Source: a virus
IMG/VR virus record: IMGVR_UViG_3300017991_000319
Location: 1-29,855 of that record
Length of the DNA stretch: 29,855 bases
Strand: one strand, 5' to 3'
Of the stretch, positions 1,843 through 21,799 are shown piece after piece. The notes beneath the pieces are model-generated. The model was not told the DNA's origin and searched no databases. It was given only the letters and a program-made list of their open reading frames with translations. Both the position numbers and the translations under genes were made by a program. The stretch's first letter is position 1; every line of letters starts with the position of its first letter.

Positions 1843-2008
1843 TTTCCGGCGTCTCCGTTTCTGCGTCGCCCTCGGCGTTTGCCGCTGCCACGATCAGGTC
1901 TGTGATTGAAACGGCAAATTTCGCCGCCTGGATGCCGCCCGCTTTGACTGCCAAATCAATTAGGTTGATCAACCCGTCTGCCTGCTGCTTCGTCAGTTCA
2001 ATCTGCAT
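1835..2008 (-). CDS. small hypothetical protein, 57 aa
   Basis: The ORF starts MQIELTKQQADGLINLIDLA and ends in an acidic tail (EGDAETETPENG). It is preceded by AGGAGG at good spacing. That ribosome site is embedded in the Arg-rich C-terminal codons of the upstream PEP-CTERM gene, which overlaps this ORF by 16 nt. Its own stop overlaps the start of the tail fibre gene by 8 nt. The protein looks amphipathic and helical with an Ala-rich centre (AAKFAVSITDLIVAAANAEG). I do not recognise a family; a fibre chaperone or a small assembly factor is possible from its position. Confidence 0.7.
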   Translation of the reverse strand: MQIELTKQQADGLINLIDLAVKAGGIQAAKFAVSITDLIVAAANAEGDAETETPENG

Positions 2009-2604
2009 GCTCGCCTCCTAATTACGCACAGTGCTACCGCCAGCCACCACGTTGCTGGCTCCGGCACTGCGCTCGCCAGTAATGTCATTCCCCAGTCCAT
2101 GCCGTCAGGCACGGCGCCACGCACGCCCTCTGCAGTCTCATAAGTTGCAATCCGATCCAGCCTCGACGCATCGGCCAGCAACGTGCTGCCGCTGATGCGC
2201 ACAGGCTCAGTGGCATGCACGCCCACCAACCACTGCCCAGCGTCTAGGGTCAGCCTCACAGGCAGCGTGCCGAGGTAAGTGCTCTCATAGGCTCCCGCGA
2301 GCCCTGCGTTGCCCCACGACGCCCATTCCGGCTGGTCGGTCCACACTTCGGTGATCGCATCGCCGCCGTTGATCCAAGTTTTCAGTTCCCAAATTCGGAG
2401 CGAGTATTGCGCCTCGGTTACCGGCCCAAACGCGACCAGGCCTAGCTGCTCTAGCGTCGTTGGTTGCGTCACGTGCAATGCGATTCCAGGCGTGCCGTAA
2501 TGCGCCGACAATCCGCCGTTGTCGCTGGTCGCCGCAGGGTCGGAGCCAATCGCATCGCCGCCCACGGGCAGCAGCAGTGCGGCCAGTAGCGTTAATCCGT
2601 ACAT
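1993..2604 (-). CDS. secreted protein with signal peptide and PEP-CTERM sorting tail, 203 aa
   Basis: The chosen start gives MYGLTLLAALLLPVGGDA, a standard signal peptide. The C-terminus carries VPEPATW, then a hydrophobic stretch (WLAVALCVI) and an Arg cluster (RRRACR). This is the tripartite PEP-CTERM architecture that exosortases process in Gram-negative bacteria. The middle is beta-rich (IWELKTWINGG, GTLPVRLTLDAGQWLVGVHA) and resembles secreted planctomycete proteins in style, but I cannot name a domain. The start overlaps the end of the upstream 101-residue gene by 13 nt. A phage gene with this tail implies use of the host exosortase to place the product at the envelope. The function could be surface modification or superinfection interference; that is inference. 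Confidence 0.8.
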   Translation of the reverse strand: MYGLTLLAALLLPVGGDAIGSDPAATSDNGGLSAHYGTPGIALHVTQPTTLEQLGLVAFGPVTEAQYSLRIWELKTWINGGDAITEVWTDQPEWASWGNAGLAGAYESTYLGTLPVRLTLDAGQWLVGVHATEPVRISGSTLLADASRLDRIATYETAEGVRGAVPDGMDWGMTLLASAVPEPATWWLAVALCVIRRRACRLN

Positions 2605-2897
2605 GGCATCCACTCGGTCAGGTTTAGTTTGCGTCGCAACGCAGGGTCGCGCCTGCTCTGCTGCACTTGCCACACTCGCGACTCTAGCTCTACCTCATCC
2701 GGCCAATACGCAAGTTGCGCCGCAGGTGCGTTGCGCAACTGGCCCGATGCCGTCATTCGCACCAAGTAGTGCCGCGGCCCGTTGCGCCCCACAATCATCG
2801 CGAGGCGTCCCTGCCAATAAACTCGGTCGCCTACCTCCAGTTGCGTTGCGCCGCGATGCCAGCGACTCCACTGCAGTGGCCCGACTGTCGGAATCAT
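2592..2897 (-). CDS. hypothetical protein with SH3/KOW-like fold signature, 101 aa
   Basis: The start overlaps the preceding stop as ATGA. The core LEVGDRVYWQGRLAMIVGR followed by HYLVRM has the spacing of a small SH3-like or KOW beta barrel. The C-terminal third is Arg-rich and helical (ESRVWQVQQSRRDPALRRK). There is no signal peptide or membrane segment. It lies between a holin-like membrane protein and the PEP-CTERM protein. The same kind of GDLVEL-type barrel recurs in 11629-11988, so two unrelated or distantly related small barrel proteins exist in this genome. Function unknown. Confidence 0.7.
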   Translation of the reverse strand: MIPTVGPLQWSRWHRGATQLEVGDRVYWQGRLAMIVGRNGPRHYLVRMTASGQLRNAPAAQLAYWPDEVELESRVWQVQQSRRDPALRRKLNLTEWMPCTD

Positions 2898-14336: not shown

Positions 14337-14641
14337 TACTTGGCCTCCTTTACTCGGATGCACGGCGTCATTCGGCCCTTGAAGTCCGTTTCTGTCGGGA
14401 AAATTGCGATCTGCTTGCCAATCCAGTTGTCCGTCTCGTTGCCATGCAATGCGATAATGCTCTTAACGTTGGTTCGATTGAGCACCATCCCTCGCGTATA
14501 CTCATTGAAAAAAAGGATGGCGCGCGTTTCTTTTTGCTCACCGACTTCACCATGATCAATCGCTCGCATGGTAACCTTCGTGTCACCGTGCAAGTCAGCA
14601 GCTTCCAAGTATCTGCCGGGGCACAGTTCGTTCGCGTTCAT
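14336..14641 (-). CDS. conserved phage OB-like protein, 101 aa
   Basis: The pattern YLEAADLHGDTKVTM, then RAILFFNEYTRGMVLNRTNV, then NWIGKQIAIFPTETDFKGR matches a small protein found in many phages next to recombination genes. The beta strand alternation and the closing KGRMTPCIRVKE suggest an OB-type fold. By context, directly downstream of the exonuclease with a TAATG overlap, it could bind single-stranded DNA or modulate recombination. The family's activity is not established to my knowledge. Confidence 0.78.
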   Translation of the reverse strand: MNANELCPGRYLEAADLHGDTKVTMRAIDHGEVGEQKETRAILFFNEYTRGMVLNRTNVKSIIALHGNETDNWIGKQIAIFPTETDFKGRMTPCIRVKEAK

Positions 14642-15510
14642 TACAACCTCACAGTCTTGTTACCGATTACCAATTCCAAACCACCCTCGTCTTGCATCGC
14701 CCATTCCGGCAACCGCCACGCATCAGGCGACTCCGGTCCAGGCCAATGGTCCTTAGCCAGGCATTCTGCGTACTGCCGCAGCAACCGCTGGTATTCCTGC
14801 CTGCCATACTCCAGCGCGTCGTCGGCAACGGGAGCTGCCTGAACGCAGTACGGCGGCTTTTTCTCCACCGCAACAATCCACGGTTCCAGAATCTCGCCAG
14901 TGATCTTGGCGTAACCGTCCTGATAAAACGCCATTTGGCGGTAGTAGCCGTAGTTGCGAAAAGAATGTCGGAACTTATTGAGATCCTCCGACGTTTTGAG
15001 ATCGGCAAACCGTGGCAAGCAGAGGCGGTCCATTCTTCCCTTACATAACAGCCCCGTCTCTTCGTCCTCCCAGACTATTGTCACCTCCGAGTCGCCATCC
15101 GAGTGCAGCAGCTTCCTCGCCTTTGCGTGTTCCGCTACGGACTGCGCGACGCCGAGCATCTCGTCGTACGCTGCCTGAGAAATCATTTCTTTGCCAACAT
15201 GCAACGCGCGGAACTGTTCCTCCTGCTCCTGCACCCACTTCGTTCGACTTGTACTGCGTTCCCCGCTCGCCGCGACGTTCTGTTCGTGTTTGGCGAACTT
15301 TGGCATAACAACGTGACGCTGCAGAACGTCGAGCGGCTCAAGGACGGCAATGTGCGCCAACCTGCCGCTTTGAAGCGCATTAGTCTCTTCTTGAGCAGGG
15401 TTCTTACAGTGCTTTGCCGACCGTGCCATCAGCGACAGCTTGCCGTTGTTCACCGCGTCCAATTCGCGGTAATCGTCGAACGGCAGGTTGTGGTAAATGC
15501 CTGGCTTCAT
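14641..15510 (-). CDS. RecE/YqaJ-like PD-(D/E)XK exonuclease, 289 aa
   Basis: The sequence starts with the typical MKPGIYHNLPFDDYRELDAV (small-substrate recognition of DUF3799/RecE C-terminal type). The motifs then follow in order: SGRLAHIAVLEP (Gly/His), a glutamate strand SEVTIVWEDEETGLLCKGR leading to MDRL (Asp), PRFADLKTSED (Asp-x-Lys catalytic pair), and YYRQMAFYQDG (Gln/Tyr motif). The activity is processive 5'-3' degradation of double-stranded DNA, which feeds an annealing protein. No RecT/Red-beta sequence is obvious next to it, so the partner may be one of the unassigned early proteins. AGGAGG precedes the ATG. Confidence 0.88.
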   Translation of the reverse strand: MKPGIYHNLPFDDYRELDAVNNGKLSLMARSAKHCKNPAQEETNALQSGRLAHIAVLEPLDVLQRHVVMPKFAKHEQNVAASGERSTSRTKWVQEQEEQFRALHVGKEMISQAAYDEMLGVAQSVAEHAKARKLLHSDGDSEVTIVWEDEETGLLCKGRMDRLCLPRFADLKTSEDLNKFRHSFRNYGYYRQMAFYQDGYAKITGEILEPWIVAVEKKPPYCVQAAPVADDALEYGRQEYQRLLRQYAECLAKDHWPGPESPDAWRLPEWAMQDEGGLELVIGNKTVRL

Positions 15511-15714: not shown

Positions 15715-16347
15715 TTATTTGTGCGGCGCAGTCGACATCACACCAGATGATGTTTCGCAGCAAATTATTTCGTCAAAACAGTCCCGCCAGTGTGGTAGTT
15801 GCTGGACGTAACAATTGTCGATGACCACAAACATGTCGCCGCTGCCGTTAGACTTACATTTGCTTATGGTGTGATTCAAATCAAAAAGGCTTGCACAAGC
15901 ACGCGACACGTCGGCCCACGACTCAAAAGAATTACTGCGCCGCGACGGGATCATTGTTCTGGATGCGATCTGCATTGCATCGACGCCAGCAATAATGCCA
16001 AACTCTTGTCCACTTCGCGTCCTTTGGCACACAAACACATGCGGCATCCCAAACACAGCCGCCTCGCAACACGCACTCCAGAAAGGCACTGCTTCGATTG
16101 CAAAGTCGCTGTCGTCTCCCCATCTGCATGTTTTTGCGTCGAACCGAATGACATGTTGCTGGTTATAAGCGACTCGATCCGCGCGTGTCCGTATCAGGTG
16201 GGCGCCGACCGTATCGACGAACCGCAGGTCTTTAGCGCATTCGTTCTGGTGATATTCCAACGAGCAGACGGTGTAGCCAAACGACTTTAGATATTCGCTA
16301 GCTCGCAGTTCCAACTTTGCGTGGTTTGGGTCACTCGTCGACGGCAT
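15715..16347 (-). CDS. putative PD-(D/E)XK-type nuclease-like protein, 210 aa
   Basis: The protein starts with a helix containing LELRASEYLKSFGYTVCSLE. The block RTRADRVAYNQQHVIRFDAK then gives an Asp, a beta strand and a D-A-K-T pair in the arrangement of restriction-like nuclease cores, and WGDDSDFAIEAVPFW follows. The match is suggestive, not complete. AAGGAG lies upstream at good spacing, and the start overlaps the methyltransferase stop by 17 nt. Next to a methyltransferase it might be a restriction-type partner, or a recombination nuclease acting with the exonuclease downstream. Confidence 0.6.
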   Translation of the reverse strand: MPSTSDPNHAKLELRASEYLKSFGYTVCSLEYHQNECAKDLRFVDTVGAHLIRTRADRVAYNQQHVIRFDAKTCRWGDDSDFAIEAVPFWSACCEAAVFGMPHVFVCQRTRSGQEFGIIAGVDAMQIASRTMIPSRRSNSFESWADVSRACASLFDLNHTISKCKSNGSGDMFVVIDNCYVQQLPHWRDCFDEIICCETSSGVMSTAPHK

Positions 16348-17566
16348 TGAAACGCTCCTTCGCTACGTTCAACGCCTCAGCGTCCACGTCGCACGTAAGA
16401 AAGTTGCGGCCGACAGATCGGCATGCCATTGCCGTCGTCCCGCCGCCACAAAACGGGTCAAACACTATTCCGTCCGGCTCCGCTAGTAAGTCGACGTAGT
16501 ACGCCGCCTCGACGACGGACTGCTGCCAGTCGTGTGCAGACTTCTCGCGCTGTGACACCACCGAGTCGTTGACGAAGACCTGGGTGTTGAATCTCGTGCC
16601 ACCCTTGACGAACCACAGCATCGGTTTCCAGGTGACGACGATGCCGCTGCGTTGCATGCGGGAGCATTGGCCGGTGTGGATGCACCCAAGTAGCCAGAAG
16701 AATCGCAGGCCAGCGGGCTTCATTGCCTCAAGAATCTGCGGCACTAAGGCGTGTCCGCAGTAGGCAATCAGACTTCCTCCATCGACCAAGACCCTCGCTG
16801 CCACCTCAGCTAGTCGTCCGTAGTCTGGCACGTACTCCGTGAAGTAGGGCGGATCGGTAAAGATCAGGTCGACAGAATTGTCTTTGAGGTGGTCCGTCGC
16901 CACCTGCACAAAGTCGCCGGGCACGAACCGTTCGTCGGCAATGGCCTGGCCAACCGCCGCAATCTCCTTGCGTGCCTCCTTGCGTTCTTGTTCCTTTTTG
17001 GCGCGGCGAACGACATTGGAAATCGCCATCTGGCTAACCTTAAGGTCAGCCGCCACCTTCTGTTGTGGTTCCCCCGCAGCAACACGCTCTGCGGCAATTC
17101 GCTGCGCGTCGGCGTTGAGCTTGACCCTAGCGTCAGGTTTAAAAGTAATATGACCCTTCATAATACTTTTAAACCATTTGGAAACAGTCGTTTGATCAAC
17201 GCCCAACGACCTGGCGACTTTCTCTTGCGTCCAAATTTTCGGGTCTGATTCGCGCCACGCTTTCGCCATCCGTTTCATTTTAGATAGCGTTTCGCGCTTC
17301 TGATCTGGCGACAGGTTGCGTCGGGCAAAGTTGGACCGAATCACAAACGCCTGCTTCTCCTCGTCCGACAATCCCGCAATCACTTTGTGCGGCGCGTTCT
17401 TGTCGATCCTGAATCGGTTATGCCCGTCAAGTATCGTGCCGCCCTCGTCCACCAGGATTGGCGCGACGACGCCATTCTGTTTAATGTCCAACTTCAGTGC
17501 GTCGAATTCCTCGGTCGACAGTGGTGGCAGCAACGCCTCAAAGTCAGGATTCACCTTAATATTCAA
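16331..17566 (-). CDS. ParB-domain DNA methyltransferase, 411 aa
   Basis: The N-terminal ParB/Srx-like domain has FDALKLDIKQNGVVAPILVD and GTILDGHNRFR (residues 43-53). It is followed by two helix-turn-helix regions (EKVARSLGVDQTTVSKWF; QQKVAADLKVSQMAISNVVR). The C-terminal domain has TDPPYFTEY (motif IV, residues 237-245) before FDPFCGGGTTAMAC (motif I, about 369-382), the beta-class order of N4-cytosine/N6-adenine methyltransferases. TTG is the start, with GAAAGGA upstream. Methylation could protect phage DNA or regulate transcription. It lies directly downstream of the longest NNGCC array, so its DNA-binding part is one candidate reader of the array. Confidence 0.88.
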   Translation of the reverse strand: MNIKVNPDFEALLPPLSTEEFDALKLDIKQNGVVAPILVDEGGTILDGHNRFRIDKNAPHKVIAGLSDEEKQAFVIRSNFARRNLSPDQKRETLSKMKRMAKAWRESDPKIWTQEKVARSLGVDQTTVSKWFKSIMKGHITFKPDARVKLNADAQRIAAERVAAGEPQQKVAADLKVSQMAISNVVRRAKKEQERKEARKEIAAVGQAIADERFVPGDFVQVATDHLKDNSVDLIFTDPPYFTEYVPDYGRLAEVAARVLVDGGSLIAYCGHALVPQILEAMKPAGLRFFWLLGCIHTGQCSRMQRSGIVVTWKPMLWFVKGGTRFNTQVFVNDSVVSQREKSAHDWQQSVVEAAYYVDLLAEPDGIVFDPFCGGGTTAMACRSVGRNFLTCDVDAEALNVAKERFNAVDE

Positions 17567-17642
17567 CTGTGCGTCCTTTCGTGTTATCTCCGCGACACAA
17601 CAACTCAGCGGATGCCTGAGCTGCGTCAGTCATTGTCATCCC

Positions 17643-17981
17643 CAGCCCGGCCCTGCCGCGCCACGCCCTGCCCCGCCTGCCACGCCACGCCAAGCCTGCC
17701 ATGCCCTGCCCAGCCTTGCCAGGCCCTGCCCCGCCCAGCCGCGCCCGGCCGCGCCGCGCCCGGCCGCGTCATGCCAGGCCTGCCTCGCCAAGCCCTGCCA
17801 AGCCCTGCCAGGCCCAGCCGCGCCGCGCCTGGCCTGCCGCGCCCCGCCATGCCGCGCCATGCCTCGCCTGGCCCAGCCAGGCCTGCCGTGCCCCGCCCGT
17901 GCCCTGCCCCGCCTGCCACGCCACGCCAAGCCGCGCCGAGCCACGCCAAGCCTCGCCCGGCCCAGCCTCGCCACGCCTGCC
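17643..17981 (-). repeat. NNGCC (GGCNN) degenerate pentamer array 1, about 69 units
   Basis: The whole stretch parses by hand into pentamers NNGCC with seven TGCC tetramers and one six-base unit. Only one unit has a damaged core (GCGTC). GCC is constant while NN varies. The array begins 3 nt after the TGA stop of 17985-18470 and ends about 75 nt before the methyltransferase start. A 32-nt block occurs twice exactly (17665-17696 and 17901-17932). The rest of the 418-nt gap (17567-17642) holds the methyltransferase ribosome site and no gene. It is stop-free in most frames, so translated frames here are not evidence of genes. Confidence 0.9.
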
Positions 17982-17984
17982 ACA

Positions 17985-18470
17985 TCACACCTGGATCGTT
18001 TCCTGCGCCTCCGCAGCAGCACGGAACACGATCGCCAGCTCTTGCAGGTCGCGATAACGACGCTGCCACCCCACCAACTCTCGCAATGCCCGCGACAAAC
18101 GCTCCGCTCGAGCGTCTGGGTCCGCCATGATCTCGTCGATCGAGCGGTACACGTTCCGCGTCTTCAACTCCGCGCTGGGAGCTCGCACCACCTCGTAGAC
18201 GCGCTGCGGACGGTCTGTCTTCAGCTCGGAGCGAATCACATGGATCGAACGCAGCAGACTGCGCGCTTGAGTTAGGCGGTACTCGTGAGCCGCCGTCGGG
18301 TCGTCCCACTCGAATTCATGGTGCAGCGGGTTGCGCTTAGCTGCTGCCGCTTGCAGTACCGTCTCCGCAGTCGCCTCGCCGTCGTGCTTGGCGCGCACGC
18401 GCTCCACTTCGCGATAAGCCGTTTCTGCATCCACCTTGAACTGTGATCCAGACTTCCAAACGATCTTCAT
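17985..18470 (-). CDS. conserved phage protein of unknown function, 161 aa
   Basis: The ATG at 18470 is chosen because GGAGG lies 5 nt before it; a GTG one codon upstream is also in frame. Sections such as AKRNPLHHEFEWDDPTAAHE and EYRLTQARSLLRSI, and the C-terminal VYRSIDEIMADPDARAERLS, are of a type that recurs in phages beside recombination or early genes. The protein is helical and charged. It is flanked by pentamer arrays on both sides, and array 1 begins 3 nt after its stop. Function unknown. Confidence 0.78.
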   Translation of the reverse strand: MKIVWKSGSQFKVDAETAYREVERVRAKHDGEATAETVLQAAAAKRNPLHHEFEWDDPTAAHEYRLTQARSLLRSIHVIRSELKTDRPQRVYEVVRAPSAELKTRNVYRSIDEIMADPDARAERLSRALRELVGWQRRYRDLQELAIVFRAAAEAQETIQV

Positions 18471-18499
18471 CACTTCCTCCTGTTAGTGAAAAACAATCC

Positions 18500-18748
18500 T
18501 TGCCCGCCCCGCCTGCCCCGCCAAGCCACGCCACGCCCAGCCACGCCCTGCCACGCCGAGCCTGGCCGAGCCCTGCCCCGCCTGCCACGCCCTGCCAGGC
18601 CCCGCCGCGCCACGCCCGGCCCCGCCTGCCACGCCATGCCGCGCCAAGCCACGCCCTGCCAAGCCCTGCCGTGCCAAGCCATGCCTGCCACGCCATGCCG
18701 CGCCAAGCCAAGCCCGGCCTCGACAAGACTCGCCGCGCCTGCCAAACC
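18500..18748 (-). repeat. NNGCC (GGCNN) degenerate pentamer array 2, about 50 units
   Basis: It has the same build as array 1: NNGCC pentamers, five TGCC tetramers and one CGCC. Three units close to the stop codon of 18749-19429 have decayed cores (TCGAC, AAGAC, AAACC), and the stop codon itself lies in the phase of the repeat (CTAGCC). A 28-nt block is duplicated exactly (18624-18651 and 18683-18710). The far end stops about 30 nt before the ribosome site of the next gene. The leading TTGCC unit is shared with array 3. Confidence 0.9.
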
Positions 18749-19429
18749 CTAGCCGATCTCTTCCTCAGTTACCGGCTCTGTCGTGTCCACTTCGAAACGC
18801 CCATAGTCGCCGCCCTTCTCAGGCCGCCACTCGCCGATGCCCACGCCAAAGCCTGCGCGGTTCACCAGGTTGATGAGCTCATTCACCGTCAGCAGTTCGC
18901 GGTCCAACTCCCACGTTACGCCTGCCGACCAGCGGTAGAAGTAGGGCCGATAGCGCAGGTCCGTCGAACCCATGCCCACGCGAACGCAGTCCTCGCGAAT
19001 CTCCGGTTCGTCGCAGTCCATTGGCAAAACGGCGTTACGGTCCTTCACTTCAAGGAACAACGCCTTACGCACCAGCGTTTTTTCCACGCCGATGTCCTTG
19101 TGGGCCGCACTGATCACCGCCGACTTCAACGCCATAGCCGGGATGCCGTACTTGCCGTCCTCTGTGTAGTAGGCCGCCCGCTCGCCCTCGCCTTGCGGGT
19201 CACGCACGTCGCGGTTCTTCGACTTCTTGCCGGCGTGCTTGTCGCGCATCATCTGTTTTGCCTTCTCGTCCCAAGCGTGCTGGATCAGCGGCGACGTGCC
19301 GACGATCCGCATGTGTACGCGGGCCTTTTTGATCGGCTTTAGCTTCGCCTGCCCATCGCCGTTGTCGCTTGGCAGCAACTTTGCGATGCGATTCTGCGTA
19401 ACAGCCGTCTTGTTTTTGCTCGTAGCCAT
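18749..19429 (-). CDS. conserved early phage protein, 226 aa
   Basis: GAGGGAAG precedes the ATG. The N-terminus is basic and disordered (MATSKNKTAVTQNRIAK). A beta-rich core follows (KKARVHMRIVGTSPLIQHAW; KYGIPAMALKSAVISAAHKD). The C-terminal GFGVGIGEWRPEKGGDYGRF is a Gly-rich loop typical of a conserved phage family that I have seen near recombination genes but cannot name functionally. It is a candidate for the missing annealing or DNA-binding partner of the exonuclease, on context alone. It is flanked on both sides by pentamer arrays; its stop abuts array 2. Confidence 0.78.
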   Translation of the reverse strand: MATSKNKTAVTQNRIAKLLPSDNGDGQAKLKPIKKARVHMRIVGTSPLIQHAWDEKAKQMMRDKHAGKKSKNRDVRDPQGEGERAAYYTEDGKYGIPAMALKSAVISAAHKDIGVEKTLVRKALFLEVKDRNAVLPMDCDEPEIREDCVRVGMGSTDLRYRPYFYRWSAGVTWELDRELLTVNELINLVNRAGFGVGIGEWRPEKGGDYGRFEVDTTEPVTEEEIG

Positions 19430-19491
19430 CGTTCTTCCCTCAGTTCAAAATGCGCTGCGAATAAATGCGGCTCGCAGCTTGCCGCGTTGTA

Positions 19492-19668
19492 TTGCCTGCC
19501 ATGCCACGCCCGGCCCCGCCCAGCCGCGCCAAGCCACGCCATGCCCAGCCGAGCCAAGCCACGCCATGCCAAGCCACGCGCGGCCGCGCCTGGCCTGCCT
19601 CGCCGCGCCTCGCCACGCCAGGCCTGGCCTCGCCCCGCCCAGCCGCGCCGCGCCGTGCCTGCCATGCC
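19492..19668 (-). repeat. NNGCC (GGCNN) degenerate pentamer array 3, about 36 units
   Basis: This is the shortest of the three arrays. It parses as NNGCC pentamers with three TGCC tetramers and one damaged unit (ACGCG). A 15-nt block AAGCCACGCCATGCC occurs twice. It starts 3 nt after the TGA that ends the small membrane-peptide ORF at 19672, exactly the spacing seen for array 1. It ends about 62 nt before the start of 18749-19429; the 19430-19491 interval holds that gene's ribosome site. Confidence 0.9.
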
Positions 19669-19671
19669 GAA

Positions 19672-19752
19672 TCAAACAGCCTCCCACACCCAGCCAATCA
19701 GCTTGAAGATTCCGGCCCAGAGACCGGCGGCCCAGAGGCAAACGACCAGCAT
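19672..19752 (-). CDS. tiny membrane peptide, 26 aa
   Basis: The ORF encodes MLVVCLWAAGLWAGIFKLIG plus a short WVWEAV end, a single Trp-rich hydrophobic span with one Lys and one Glu. It overlaps the end of 19698-19994 in another frame and has no strong ribosome site, so it would depend on coupling. Its reality is supported by the array: array 3 starts 3 nt after its TGA, just as array 1 starts 3 nt after a gene's stop. Without that, chance would be a fair explanation. It could be a small holin-like, superinfection or regulatory membrane peptide. Confidence 0.5.
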   Translation of the reverse strand: MLVVCLWAAGLWAGIFKLIGWVWEAV

Positions 19753-19994
19753 CCCGACTGCGGGTCCAAAGTCGCGTTGGGAAGAGTGCCGGTCTTGGAA
19801 TTCAAGAAATCGACAAACTCCCGGCCGACCAAATCGCGCGCCATCCTGACGTACTCCCACGCCAGCCCGCTGCGCTCGTCGTCGCTTACCGACATATGCC
19901 ACGCGAACAGTTCCTGCAGCTCGTCGTGGTGGTGCTGCGTAGCGTCGAGGCTCGCTGCGTAGTCTTCCCAAATTGCGCGTGCTCGATCGTCCAT
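19698..19994 (-). CDS. hypothetical early protein, 98 aa
   Basis: The start overlaps the upstream stop as TGATG, with AAGGAG at 9 nt. The protein is helical and acidic (DRARAIWEDYAASLDATQHH; LAWEYVRMARDLVGREFVDF). It has a Ser/Pro-rich tail (ASGPPVSGPESSS) that is encoded where the hydrophobic peptide ORF overlaps in another frame. The low-complexity tail suggests that this end is constrained by the overlapping frame. Family unknown. Confidence 0.7.
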   Translation of the reverse strand: MDDRARAIWEDYAASLDATQHHHDELQELFAWHMSVSDDERSGLAWEYVRMARDLVGREFVDFLNSKTGTLPNATLDPQSGCWSFASGPPVSGPESSS

Positions 19995-20296
19995 CAGTTA
20001 TGCTCCTTTCGTTTTTTGGCATTTGCTTCCCACTCCTTTGCCTCTTCCAGCGTGATCCAATCGCAAAAGTTGGCGTGAACAACTTCCACCGAATGGCCGT
20101 TTTTTATGAGTCCGCGCGCAACGCCCACATAGCCTTCGCCAAACGCGGTGCGCTCAATCGCGGGACGTGGCTTGCGCGGAAAAAGAATGCTGCGTACCGT
20201 CGCAGCGTCGAGCCCGCGTATCTCGCAGATCGCGTCGACATGAAAACCGACCGCGTAGTCGCGGCGCACTGCCGCCGCAGTTGCTGGGTGCGTCAT
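19994..20296 (-). CDS. hypothetical early protein, first gene of the operon, 100 aa
   Basis: The start MTHPATAAAVRRDYAVGFHV is preceded by GGAGG at good spacing; upstream in-frame codons lack a better site. The centre (ICEIRGLDAATVRSILFPRK) looks like a helix-turn-helix with a basic flank. The C-terminal part reads FCDWITLEEAKEWEANAKKR. It may bind DNA. It is the first gene after the repressor terminator, so it is probably the first early gene; a promoter between 20297 and 20440 is required but not certain. Confidence 0.7.
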   Translation of the reverse strand: MTHPATAAAVRRDYAVGFHVDAICEIRGLDAATVRSILFPRKPRPAIERTAFGEGYVGVARGLIKNGHSVEVVHANFCDWITLEEAKEWEANAKKRKEHN

Positions 20297-20368
20297 CGTG
20301 CCTCCGTGCCGCAGTCCGCCCAACTGCTGGCGTCGATCAGTGAAGGCTTTCCGATTTGCAAGACGCGC

Positions 20369-20408
20369 AAAAAGAAAGCCGACGTGCCACTATTTGCGAC
20401 ACGTCGGC
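20369..20408 (-). terminator. intrinsic terminator downstream of the repressor gene
   Basis: GCCGACGTG (20378-20386) pairs perfectly with CACGTCGGC (20400-20408) around a 13-nt loop, and on the minus strand the stem is followed by TTTCTTTTT. This is a textbook rho-independent terminator for transcription coming from the repressor gene. Confidence 0.8.
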
Positions 20409-20411
20409 AAG

Positions 20412-20439
20412 TCTATCGGATGATTGACTAGACAATCAA
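20412..20439 (-). promoter_or_regulatory. 18-bp near-palindrome with possible minus-strand promoter
   Basis: TGATTG and CAATCA flank a TCTAGT centre at 20421-20438, symmetric at 16 of 18 positions; it is a candidate operator for the repressor. On the minus strand TTGATT and TAGACT are 18 nt apart, a plausible -35/-10 pair, but such a transcript would start at the edge of the terminator hairpin. That is an unusual arrangement, and early transcription may be controlled here by repression and termination together. Confidence 0.4.
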
Positions 20440-20442
20440 TAG

Positions 20443-20673
20443 CTAGACGCGAATTTTTTCAGAAATTAGGTCTTTGGGGTCGACGCCCAGCGCCTCAGCC
20501 GCCTTTTCCAGGCTGTCAAAACCAGGGTTGCGAAACCCGGTCAGCAAGTGCGACACGTACTGTTTCTTGACGCCCATTGCGTTGGCGAGGTCAGTCTGCG
20601 ACCACTCCAGCTCGCTCAGCCGCTCGCGCACACGCATGCGAAATAGCTCTGCTAATTTAGTTGCCATATCCAT
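20443..20673 (-). CDS. XRE/Cro-CI family repressor, 76 aa
   Basis: The protein is a single helix-turn-helix domain. RERLSELEWSQTDLANAMGV gives helices 1-2, and VKKQYVSHLLTGFRNPGFDS gives the recognition helix and turn. It ends EKAAEALGVDPKDLISEKI as in small XRE proteins. There is no C-terminal dimerisation/peptidase domain, so it would not be RecA-cleaved in the lambda way. It may be Cro-like or an HTH-only immunity repressor. The start could be the ATG at 20673 or the one at 20667. Its promoter overlaps one of the palindromes upstream, suggesting autoregulation. Confidence 0.85.
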   Translation of the reverse strand: MDMATKLAELFRMRVRERLSELEWSQTDLANAMGVKKQYVSHLLTGFRNPGFDSLEKAAEALGVDPKDLISEKIRV

Positions 20674-20680
20674 GCCCCGA

Positions 20681-20708
20681 AGTATATCATTGGATTGACG
20701 ACATGCAA
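20681..20708 (-). promoter_or_regulatory. candidate repressor promoter
   Basis: On the minus strand TTGCAT (20708-20703) and TATACT (20686-20681) are 16 nt apart. Transcription would start at or next to the repressor ATG, so the mRNA could be leaderless or very short-leadered. The -35 region overlaps the palindrome GACATGCAATGTC (20700-20712), which fits autoregulation. Confidence 0.45.
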
Positions 20709-20747
20709 TGTCCAGCAATGGACTGGAAATGTTGTCCGTTGGCGGAC
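20700..20747. promoter_or_regulatory. cluster of three palindromes, candidate operators or integrase arm sites
   Basis: Three palindromes lie within 48 bp: GACATGCAATGTC (20700-20712), GTCCAGCAATGGAC (20710-20723) and GTCCGTTGGCGGAC (20734-20747). The last two share GTCC-x6-GGAC with centres 24 bp apart. They lie between the repressor start and the tRNA-like element, so they may be repressor operators or arm-type sites for the integrase. Confidence 0.5.
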
Positions 20748-20752
20748 CGGAG

Positions 20753-20827
20753 TGGGGATGACAGGAATCGAACCTGTCACCCTGCCAGCCGGAAAACCCA
20801 GCAAATCGCGATATTTGCCACACCCCC
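20753..20827 (-). other. tRNA-like sequence, candidate attP core
   Basis: Read on the minus strand, GGGGGTG can pair with CATCCCC (7-bp acceptor with one G-T). GCAA ... TTGC forms a D-like stem and ACAGG-TTCGATT-CCTGT a canonical T arm with TTC and A58, with 75 nt in all. The anticodon arm does not form properly (candidate anticodon CCG in a broken stem) and the D loop lacks GG. It is therefore unlikely to be a working tRNA. It fits phages that carry part of a host tRNA 3' half as their attachment site, about 130 nt from the integrase gene. Confidence 0.5.
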
Positions 20828-20959
20828 CTTCGTAGGGGATTCCCGCAAAATTCGCGACCTGATGCCGCGATTGGCTTTCGTCAATAAGCATGCATGAGGG
20901 GCAGCGGTTAGGAGGCCGCACGGAAATGCCACAGGGACGTCAGCAGAAAATGGCGTTCA

Positions 20960-21799
20960 GTGTTTCGCCCGTTGTCGCTGCCAGAACTGGCAGCAGATTA
21001 TCTGTCCGCACGCGACGTGTGCCCGCGATATGCTCGCGGGTTCGCGCACAAGGTGTCTGCGTTCTGCGAGTGGTCTGGCAGCACGTCGCCTGATTGCCTG
21101 TCCGAAGGGCGGCTCAACGATTACCTGCGCAGCCTGCGAGCTGCGGGCAGATCGCCTGCGACGGTGAGAAACCACCGCAACGACTTATTAGTGCTCTGGC
21201 GATGGCTGGCCGACGCTGGGCAAGTGCCGCAGCCAGCGGCGCGAGAAGTGATGGCGGTTCGCGTGCCTTACAGCGTGCCCGATTGCTGGATGCTTGACGA
21301 GGTGCGAGCTCTGCTGTCTGCCGCTGAGTCGCTGGCGGGCGACCTGCCCAACGGCGTGCCGGCTGCGGCGTACTGGTCGGCTGCGATCCGCGTAGGATGG
21401 GAAACGGGCCTGAGGCTAGGCGACATGCAGCGGCTGAAAATGTCGCAACTGTCCGGCTGCCAGCTCGTAACTGTCGCCAGCAAAACCGGGCAGAGGCAAA
21501 TCCACACGCTTACCGCAGATTGCGTTGGCTCGCTGGAGGCCCTAGACCGGCCTGTGCCGCTGGCGTGGCCTTATCGGCCAAATAGATTTGGCATCCACTT
21601 TGAGCGCCTGCGCAAGGCAGCAGGCGTGCGTCGCGGGACGTGGAAGTGGTTCCGCCGCGCGTCAGGATCCTACGTCGCTGCGAAGCATGGAGAGGCAGCC
21701 GGTGCGGCGCATTTGGGACATACCAGCGTGGCGACGTTTCGGAAGTTTTACGACGCGCGGCTTGTTGCCGAGGCGCGGCCGATGCCGCCGAAGTTGTAG
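20960..21799 (+). CDS. int: tyrosine recombinase (phage integrase), 279 aa
   Basis: The N-terminal SAM-like core-binding domain covers about residues 8-90 (ELAADYLSARDVCPRYARGF; SPATVRNHRNDLLVLWRWLA). The catalytic domain has Arg at about 152 in WETGLRLGDMQRLK, Lys 175 in ASKTGQ, Arg 232 in WKWFRRASGSYVA (the usual preceding His is Lys), the HLGHTS motif and the nucleophile Tyr 264 in FRKFYDARL. The start is GTG, the only start codon between the upstream stop and the conserved domain. It is the only well-supported plus-strand gene and opposes the structural operon. Together with the tRNA-like site it marks a temperate phage. Confidence 0.9.
   Translation: MFRPLSLPELAADYLSARDVCPRYARGFAHKVSAFCEWSGSTSPDCLSEGRLNDYLRSLRAAGRSPATVRNHRNDLLVLWRWLADAGQVPQPAAREVMAVRVPYSVPDCWMLDEVRALLSAAESLAGDLPNGVPAAAYWSAAIRVGWETGLRLGDMQRLKMSQLSGCQLVTVASKTGQRQIHTLTADCVGSLEALDRPVPLAWPYRPNRFGIHFERLRKAAGVRRGTWKWFRRASGSYVAAKHGEAAGAAHLGHTSVATFRKFYDARLVAEARPMPPKL

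What the first reader, a model, noticed from the sequence alone, without database searches (positions are those of the whole stretch)
17643..19668. Three intergenic arrays of degenerate pentamers NNGCC (GGCNN on the transcribed strand)
By hand, arrays 17643-17981, 18500-18748 and 19492-19668 parse into about 150 units with GCC fixed and the two N positions freely variable. TGCC tetramers recur (about 15) in place of a pentamer. Ordinary tandem repeats have near-identical units; here only a 3-nt core is kept with a 5-nt step, across three separate loci. That implies something reads GGC (or GCC) at a 5-nt step and ignores the two positions between. TRAP's (G/U)AG triplets separated by 2-3 nt are the nearest analogy for an RNA reader. 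A DNA or strand-annealing filament (RecT-type proteins bind a few nt per monomer) is an alternative. The encoded ParB-domain methyltransferase, the 226-aa and the 161-aa proteins are local reader candidates.
Basis: partly seen in the sequence, partly recalled or inferred. Interest (0 to 1): 0.93.

Follow-up and report, generated by a model that had tools for sequence, protein, structure and literature searches.

The report
VIPR RNA-guided system in a phage
The odd five-letter repeats are the guide-RNA arrays of a recently described virus-borne, CRISPR-related targeting system called VIPR: the fixed GGC is what the protein grips, and the two 'free' letters are the address of the DNA to be silenced.

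Summary
Three arrays (17643-17981, 18500-18748, 19492-19668) hold about 150 GGC cores on the minus strand at a 5-nt step with variable NN. No dinucleotide shuffle of the window gives even one six-unit match; the window has 71.

The arrays are the guide-RNA (vrRNA) loci of a VIPR system (Viral Interference Programmable Repeat; preprint of April 2026, PMC13142463). The neighbouring 226-aa protein (18749-19429) is a Vipr: its family profile matches the solved SUSP1 Vipr at E=2.8e-41, and its predicted fold matches Cas7-type RAMPs. A blind DNA search for (GCCNN)n found this protein family beside the arrays in most phage loci, against 0 of 50 control contigs. GGCNN lies on the vipr sense strand for 211 arrays and antisense for 6.

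The window belongs to a clade distinct from the characterised SUSP1 type. Its arrays are cut by GGCA tetramers into modules of about 7-13 units, and it carries its own accessory protein (17985-18473). Sister mycobacteriophages differ by whole modules. No natural target of five tested window guides was found. Verdict: new member of a known kind.

The parts
18749..19429 (-). vipr gene: 226-aa Vipr (RAMP-family) protein, phrog_4652
   Evidence: phrog_4652 E=1.7e-35; profile of 81 relatives matches PDB 36pp_D 'SUSP1 Vipr protein' E=2.8e-41; AF2 pLDDT 91.8; Foldseek hits are nearly all Cas7-type RAMPs
19492..19668 (-). vrRNA array A3, upstream of vipr; two long modules between GGCA tetramers (12 and about 19 units)
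18500..18748 (-). vrRNA array A2, between vipr and the accessory gene; modules of 10, 11, 8 and 13 units between GGCA tetramers; two imperfect cores near 18725-18735
17643..17981 (-). vrRNA array A1, downstream of the accessory gene; modules of 12, about 5, 9, 10, 16 and 3 units, then about 7 without a closing GGCA
17985..18473 (-). candidate VIPR accessory protein (vap) of this clade: 162 aa, phrog_15946, possible winged-helix fold
   Evidence: homologue in 29 of 34 loci of the window's Vipr clade and 1 of 53 outside; no BLASTP match to SUSP1 vap1; AF2 pLDDT 91.5; only weak winged-helix hits, best E=0.24

Best explanation
This is a phage-borne VIPR system. The arrays are transcribed from the minus strand as GGCNN RNAs. 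Vipr subunits (18749-19429) assemble along the RNA, each gripping one GGC, and expose the NN pairs. The NN pairs base-pair with double-stranded DNA in which each pair is followed by one skipped base (the 1-nt skip rule), usually the codon wobble position, and binding represses the target gene, typically in a competing phage or mobile element. In the window's clade the arrays are further divided by GGCA tetramers into modules of about 7-13 units, each probably one guide, and a clade-specific accessory protein (17985-18473) takes the place of SUSP1 vap1. Shown here: protein family, predicted fold, array form, orientation, association, modularity. Taken from the paper: RNA binding, the skip rule, repression. 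Inferred: that this copy is expressed and works the same way.
For: Vipr homology E=2.8e-41 and Cas7-like fold. A protein-blind DNA scan found the family in 90 of 138 array loci, against 0 of 50 IMG/VR contigs found with unrelated patterns. Array orientation relative to vipr is 211 sense to 6 antisense within 2 kb. SUSP1 itself has the same layout. Close isolates (Gordonia phage UmaThurman, Mycobacterium phage Saal) carry the same GGCA-cut arrays beside vipr. NN in 329 modules fit codon positions 1-2 best (log-likelihood -9837, against -10018 for 2-3, -10557 for 3-1, -10230 for reversed 1-2, -10207 for plain dinucleotide frequency). Spacing of 117 GGCA gaps: 71% at 7-13 units against 25% expected, 0 of 20,000 simulations. 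Sister phages gain or lose whole modules.
Against: No natural target was found for five window guides in IMG/VR, nor for one of them in 392 Planctomycetota genomes (4 three-mismatch hits, control 1). A pooled test of skip rules on held sequence was not discriminating. The window's own NN do not separate codon phase 1-2 from 2-3 (-310.8 against -311.2). No structured 3' tail was seen at the array ends. 28 array-bearing viral records have no recognisable Vipr, and eight of nine Vipr-encoding loci found protein-first in Planctomycetota genomes, scanned within about 1.5 kb, lack an array of at least eight GGY units.
Confidence: 0.94

Rival explanations
1. Neutral microsatellite: slipped-strand expansion of a GC-rich pentamer followed by drift, with no function.
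For: Arrays are tandem and GC-rich, and some neighbouring modules are partial copies of each other. Most hits in bacterial genomes are perfect, low-entropy microsatellites.
Against: Drift would erode the core as fast as NN; here the core is kept and NN entropy is 3-3.8 bits in most viral loci with more than about 20 units. Strict association with one protein family and fixed orientation; regular GGCA spacing.
Confidence: 0.02
2. Autoregulatory leader: the arrays are binding sites in the mRNA or DNA through which the 226-aa protein controls its own operon (TRAP-like), and NN is irrelevant.
Against: NN would then be unconstrained, yet it fits codon positions 1-2 better than genome composition. 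Whole modules are exchanged between sister phages. The relative SUSP1 uses NN as guide (PMC13142463).
Confidence: 0.03
3. Substrate for a strand-annealing (RecT/Red-beta type) filament.
For: The window has an exonuclease VIII homologue (14641-15510), and single-strand annealing proteins bind a few nt per subunit (general knowledge).
Against: The 226-aa protein has a RAMP, not a RecT, fold and belongs to the Vipr family.
Confidence: 0.01

Closest known systems
VIPR of Escherichia phage SUSP1 (type II in the paper; PMC13142463, PDB 36pp)
   Same: Vipr homologue (phrog_4652), GGY/NN arrays on the sense strand before and after the protein genes, one small accessory gene
   Different: SUSP1 has four separate ~100-nt vrRNAs with a structured 3' tail and vap1 (phrog_5926). 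The window has long continuous arrays cut by GGCA, no structured tail seen, and an unrelated accessory protein (phrog_15946). Its Vipr lies in another well-supported clade.
VIPR-like loci of Gordonia phages UmaThurman, Pipp, Ecliptus, ODay and Mycobacterium phages Saal, ByChance, BobaPhett, Gorge, Donkeykong, Brocalys, Pippy
   Same: Vipr 38-42% identical to the window's, GGCA-cut GGY/NN arrays, homologue of the 162-aa accessory protein where tested (UmaThurman, Saal, Ecliptus)
   Different: Different guides; Gordonia arrays mix GGT and GGC cores; annotated as hypothetical proteins
Class 1 CRISPR-Cas (Cas7/Csm3 backbone, crRNA)
   Same: RAMP fold of the RNA-coating subunit; modular guide array
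   Different: No cas operon or CRISPR repeats seen at the locus; guide interrupted every 2 nt; borne by a phage
TRAP (11-mer ring on (G/U)AG triplets)
   Same: Protein reads a short triplet at a fixed RNA step
   Different: Unrelated protein; in TRAP the spacer bases carry no information

Membership tests
VIPR system | Vipr protein, an early-branching RAMP with RRM core, G-loop and thumb | tested here: met
   Profile match to the solved SUSP1 Vipr E=2.8e-41; Cas7/Csm3-like fold, E about 5e-6; glycine-rich C-terminal motif with invariant G210 and near-invariant G193, G197, G199, R202
VIPR system | Flanking RNA of alternating GGY/NN, NN hypervariable, core constant | tested here: met
   14 of 16 NN types used
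VIPR system | GGY/NN read from the strand that vipr is on | tested here: met
   All three window arrays are GGCNN on the minus strand, as vipr; 211 against 6 over 90 loci
VIPR system | 9-16 repeats per vrRNA | tested here: inconclusive
   The long arrays are cut by GGCA into modules, 71% of gaps at 7-13 units over all loci; window modules range from 3 to about 19 units. RNA ends not observed.
VIPR system | Invariable 3' tail with secondary structure (shown for SUSP1-type vrRNAs) | tested here: not met
   Three array ends fold no better than shuffles (z 0.31, -0.47, 0.89) and share no obvious tail. The paper describes other array architectures, so this bears on type, not on the system.
VIPR system | Adjacent vap gene | tested here: met
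   162-aa protein conserved beside vipr in 29 of 34 clade members; identity with any of the published vap2-6 not testable (supplement not readable)
VIPR system | Targets matching NN with a 1-nt skip | tested here: inconclusive
   No target found for the guides tried; pooled NN composition fits codon positions 1-2, as expected if the skip is the wobble base
VIPR system | vrRNA expressed and bound by Vipr; DNA binding and repression | not testable with these tools
   Needs small-RNA sequencing, pull-down and reporter assays
VIPR type II (SUSP1 type) | Vipr within the SUSP1 clade, with vap1 | tested here: not met
   Window Vipr lies in a separate clade of 34 (support 100/98) that excludes SUSP1; accessory protein has no BLASTP match to vap1

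The most novel reading that the evidence does not exclude
In the window's Vipr clade, guides are stored as one continuous GGCNN tract in which a single missing base (GGCA in place of GGCNN) marks every guide boundary, without the folded tail of SUSP1 vrRNAs. Such modules are gained and lost whole between sister phages, much as CRISPR spacers are. This would be a second way of punctuating a VIPR array, perhaps with its own means of processing and of acquiring guides.
Probability: 0.35. Interest if true: 0.65.

Novelty: new member of a known kind. Interest (0 to 1): 0.5.

Why it matters
It shows from raw sequence that a VIPR system sits in an uncultivated, probably planctomycete-infecting, phage, and that the characterised SUSP1 type is only one clade among many. 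The GGCA-cut arrays and the whole-module differences between sister mycobacteriophages give a tractable laboratory model (M. smegmatis phages) for asking how VIPR guides are delimited and acquired, which bears on how CRISPR-like memory could have begun.

Tried and rejected
Searching for targets of five window guides (8-unit seeds checked by flanking units) in IMG/VR: flanking matches at about chance. Full 12-unit guide A3-1 with up to 3 mismatches in 392 Planctomycetota genomes: 4 hits against 1 in the control. Pooled guides of all loci against held sequence under skip 0-3 with reversed and shuffled controls: no clear signal. Hammerhead or other Rfam RNAs in 16000-21000: none but a sub-threshold tRNA and a chance-level 5.8S match. 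Other triplet cores in Planctomycetota vipr loci: none. TRAP, RecT-type and microsatellite readings rejected as given under rivals. The paper's supplement (types, vap families, staggered arrays) could not be read, so the type number is left open.

Full report
WHAT IS THERE. The three arrays are as described. Read on the minus strand, the strand of the neighbouring genes, they are GGCNN repeats; strict parsing gives 148 cores, 127 pentamer steps and 15 tetramer steps, 14 of them GGCA on that strand. A six-unit pattern matches 71 times, against 0 in 100 dinucleotide shuffles and 0 for the reversed pattern. The window is a virus record of 29,855 bases.

HOW COMMON IT IS. Most have highly variable NN, and those with more than about 20 units reach 3-3.8 bits. 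The same kind of scan of bacterial genomes returned mostly perfect, low-entropy microsatellites. The imperfect kind is thus largely a feature of phage contigs.

THE LINKED PROTEIN. Among these loci, 90 of 138 with arrays encode a relative of the window's 226-aa protein, nearly always within a few hundred bases of the arrays. In 50 IMG/VR contigs found by unrelated patterns the family occurs in none. Arrays within 2 kb of the gene carry GGCNN on its sense strand in 211 cases and on the other in 6. All 81 aligned members are phrog_4652, of unknown function in PHROGs. Their profile matches one solved structure, 36pp 'SUSP1 Vipr protein', at E=2.8e-41. The predicted model (pLDDT 91.8) matches Cas7-type subunits of type VII and type III CRISPR complexes.

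WHAT IS KNOWN. The paper PMC13142463 (bioRxiv, April 2026, version of June 2026) describes VIPR: a phage-borne RAMP protein, Vipr, with vrRNAs of alternating GGY/NN. NN pairs with double-stranded DNA under a 1-nt skip rule, the skipped base usually falling at the codon wobble position, and binding represses genes of competing phages. It names seven types, six accessory families, and staggered and hammerhead-interspersed arrays. Its supplement was not readable here. The window meets the main defining features that could be tested; expression, RNA binding and repression could not be.

WHERE THE WINDOW DIFFERS FROM SUSP1. The SUSP1 locus has the same general layout, and its arrays are GGY/NN. A tree of 87 Vipr proteins places the window in a clade of 34 with support 100/98, with SUSP1 outside it. 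Of this clade, 25 have GGCA tetramers and 29 carry a homologue of the window's 162-aa protein, against 2 and 1 of the 53 others. That protein has no BLASTP match to SUSP1 vap1. It is phrog_15946, while vap1 is phrog_5926. Its fold has only weak winged-helix matches (best E=0.24), so a DNA-binding role is a suggestion only.

GGCA PUNCTUATION. Over all loci 172 of 196 tetramers are GGCA. The 117 gaps between successive GGCA have mean 8.5 and sd 4.3 units, 71% at 7-13, against sd 9.0 and 25% if placed at random; no simulation of 20,000 came near. Among Cheoctovirus mycobacteriophages, ByChance lacks exactly one 11-unit GGCA-bounded module that Saal, BobaPhett and Gorge have, and Donkeykong has two modules that Brocalys and Pippy lack. 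Where modules are shared the cores are intact and the differences are in NN (one or two bases in the first shared module) or a single inserted unit. The Gordonia phages UmaThurman and Pipp keep the array position but hold different guides. I infer that GGCA marks the boundary of a guide. The paper's 'staggered arrays with overlapping vrRNAs' may be the same thing; I could not check.

DOES NN CARRY CODING INFORMATION? For each of 329 modules NN was scored against codon-position dinucleotides of the same contig's genes, letting each module be sense or antisense. Positions 1-2 fit best in total (log-likelihood -9837, against -10018 for 2-3, -10557 for 3-1, -10230 for reversed 1-2 and -10207 for plain dinucleotide frequency) and in 72 of 99 loci. 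This is what guides against coding DNA with the skip at the wobble base would show, and it does not depend on finding targets. The window alone cannot separate 1-2 from 2-3 (-310.8 against -311.2). The test rests on composition and on simple gene calls, so it is supporting evidence only.

TARGETS. None was found: five window guides in IMG/VR gave flanking matches at chance, and one guide in 392 Planctomycetota genomes gave 4 three-mismatch hits against 1 control. The host is unknown. A PEP-CTERM-like protein in the window and weak relatives of a structural protein in 31 of 392 Planctomycetota genomes point that way without settling it; no other phylum was searched for comparison.

JUDGEMENT. 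The finding is a VIPR system with confidence 0.94. What is left open is the GGCA-punctuated architecture, the accessory protein, how guides are acquired, and array-bearing phage contigs that have no recognisable Vipr.

Noticed in passing
L041, L051, L065, L105, L110, L114, L120, L125, L139, L140, L146, L149 and others (28 viral records): High-entropy GGCNN arrays in viral records without a recognisable Vipr anywhere in the record: orphan guide RNAs (the paper reports satellites encoding vrRNAs), diverged Viprs, or incomplete records.
   Followed up: partly
L300-L307 (Planctomycetota genomes): Genuine phrog_4652 homologues found protein-first with no GGY array of seven or more units within about 1.5 kb and no other triplet-core array; they may use another repeat consensus, have distant arrays, or lack guides.
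   Followed up: partly
L083 2041-3413: A 158-kb phage contig with about 230 GGY units and 31 tetramers beside vipr, the largest array seen here.
   Followed up: no
L141 3641-3973: Two successive modules differ in one NN pair only (CA AA TT TC AA AT GG AC and CA AA TT TC AA CT GG AC), as if a guide had been duplicated and retargeted.
   Followed up: no
L222: One alphaproteobacterial locus with two different Viprs, one from the window's clade with its accessory protein and one from outside it.
   Followed up: no
window 16331-17566 -: ParB-like N-terminal region, helix-turn-helix and N6/N4 DNA methylase in one 411-aa protein, just downstream of array A1; relatives lie kilobases away from arrays in most other loci, so no VIPR link is apparent.
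   Followed up: partly
window 1993-2673 -: 226-aa protein ending in a PEP-CTERM-like sorting signal (VPEPATWWLAVALCVIRRRACRLN) in a phage record; unusual and suggestive of an exosortase-bearing host.
   Followed up: no
window 20752-20827 -: tRNA-Glu (TTC) call next to a tyrosine integrase (20960-21799 +), possibly the attachment site; it scores below the Rfam threshold, so it may be a remnant.
   Followed up: no
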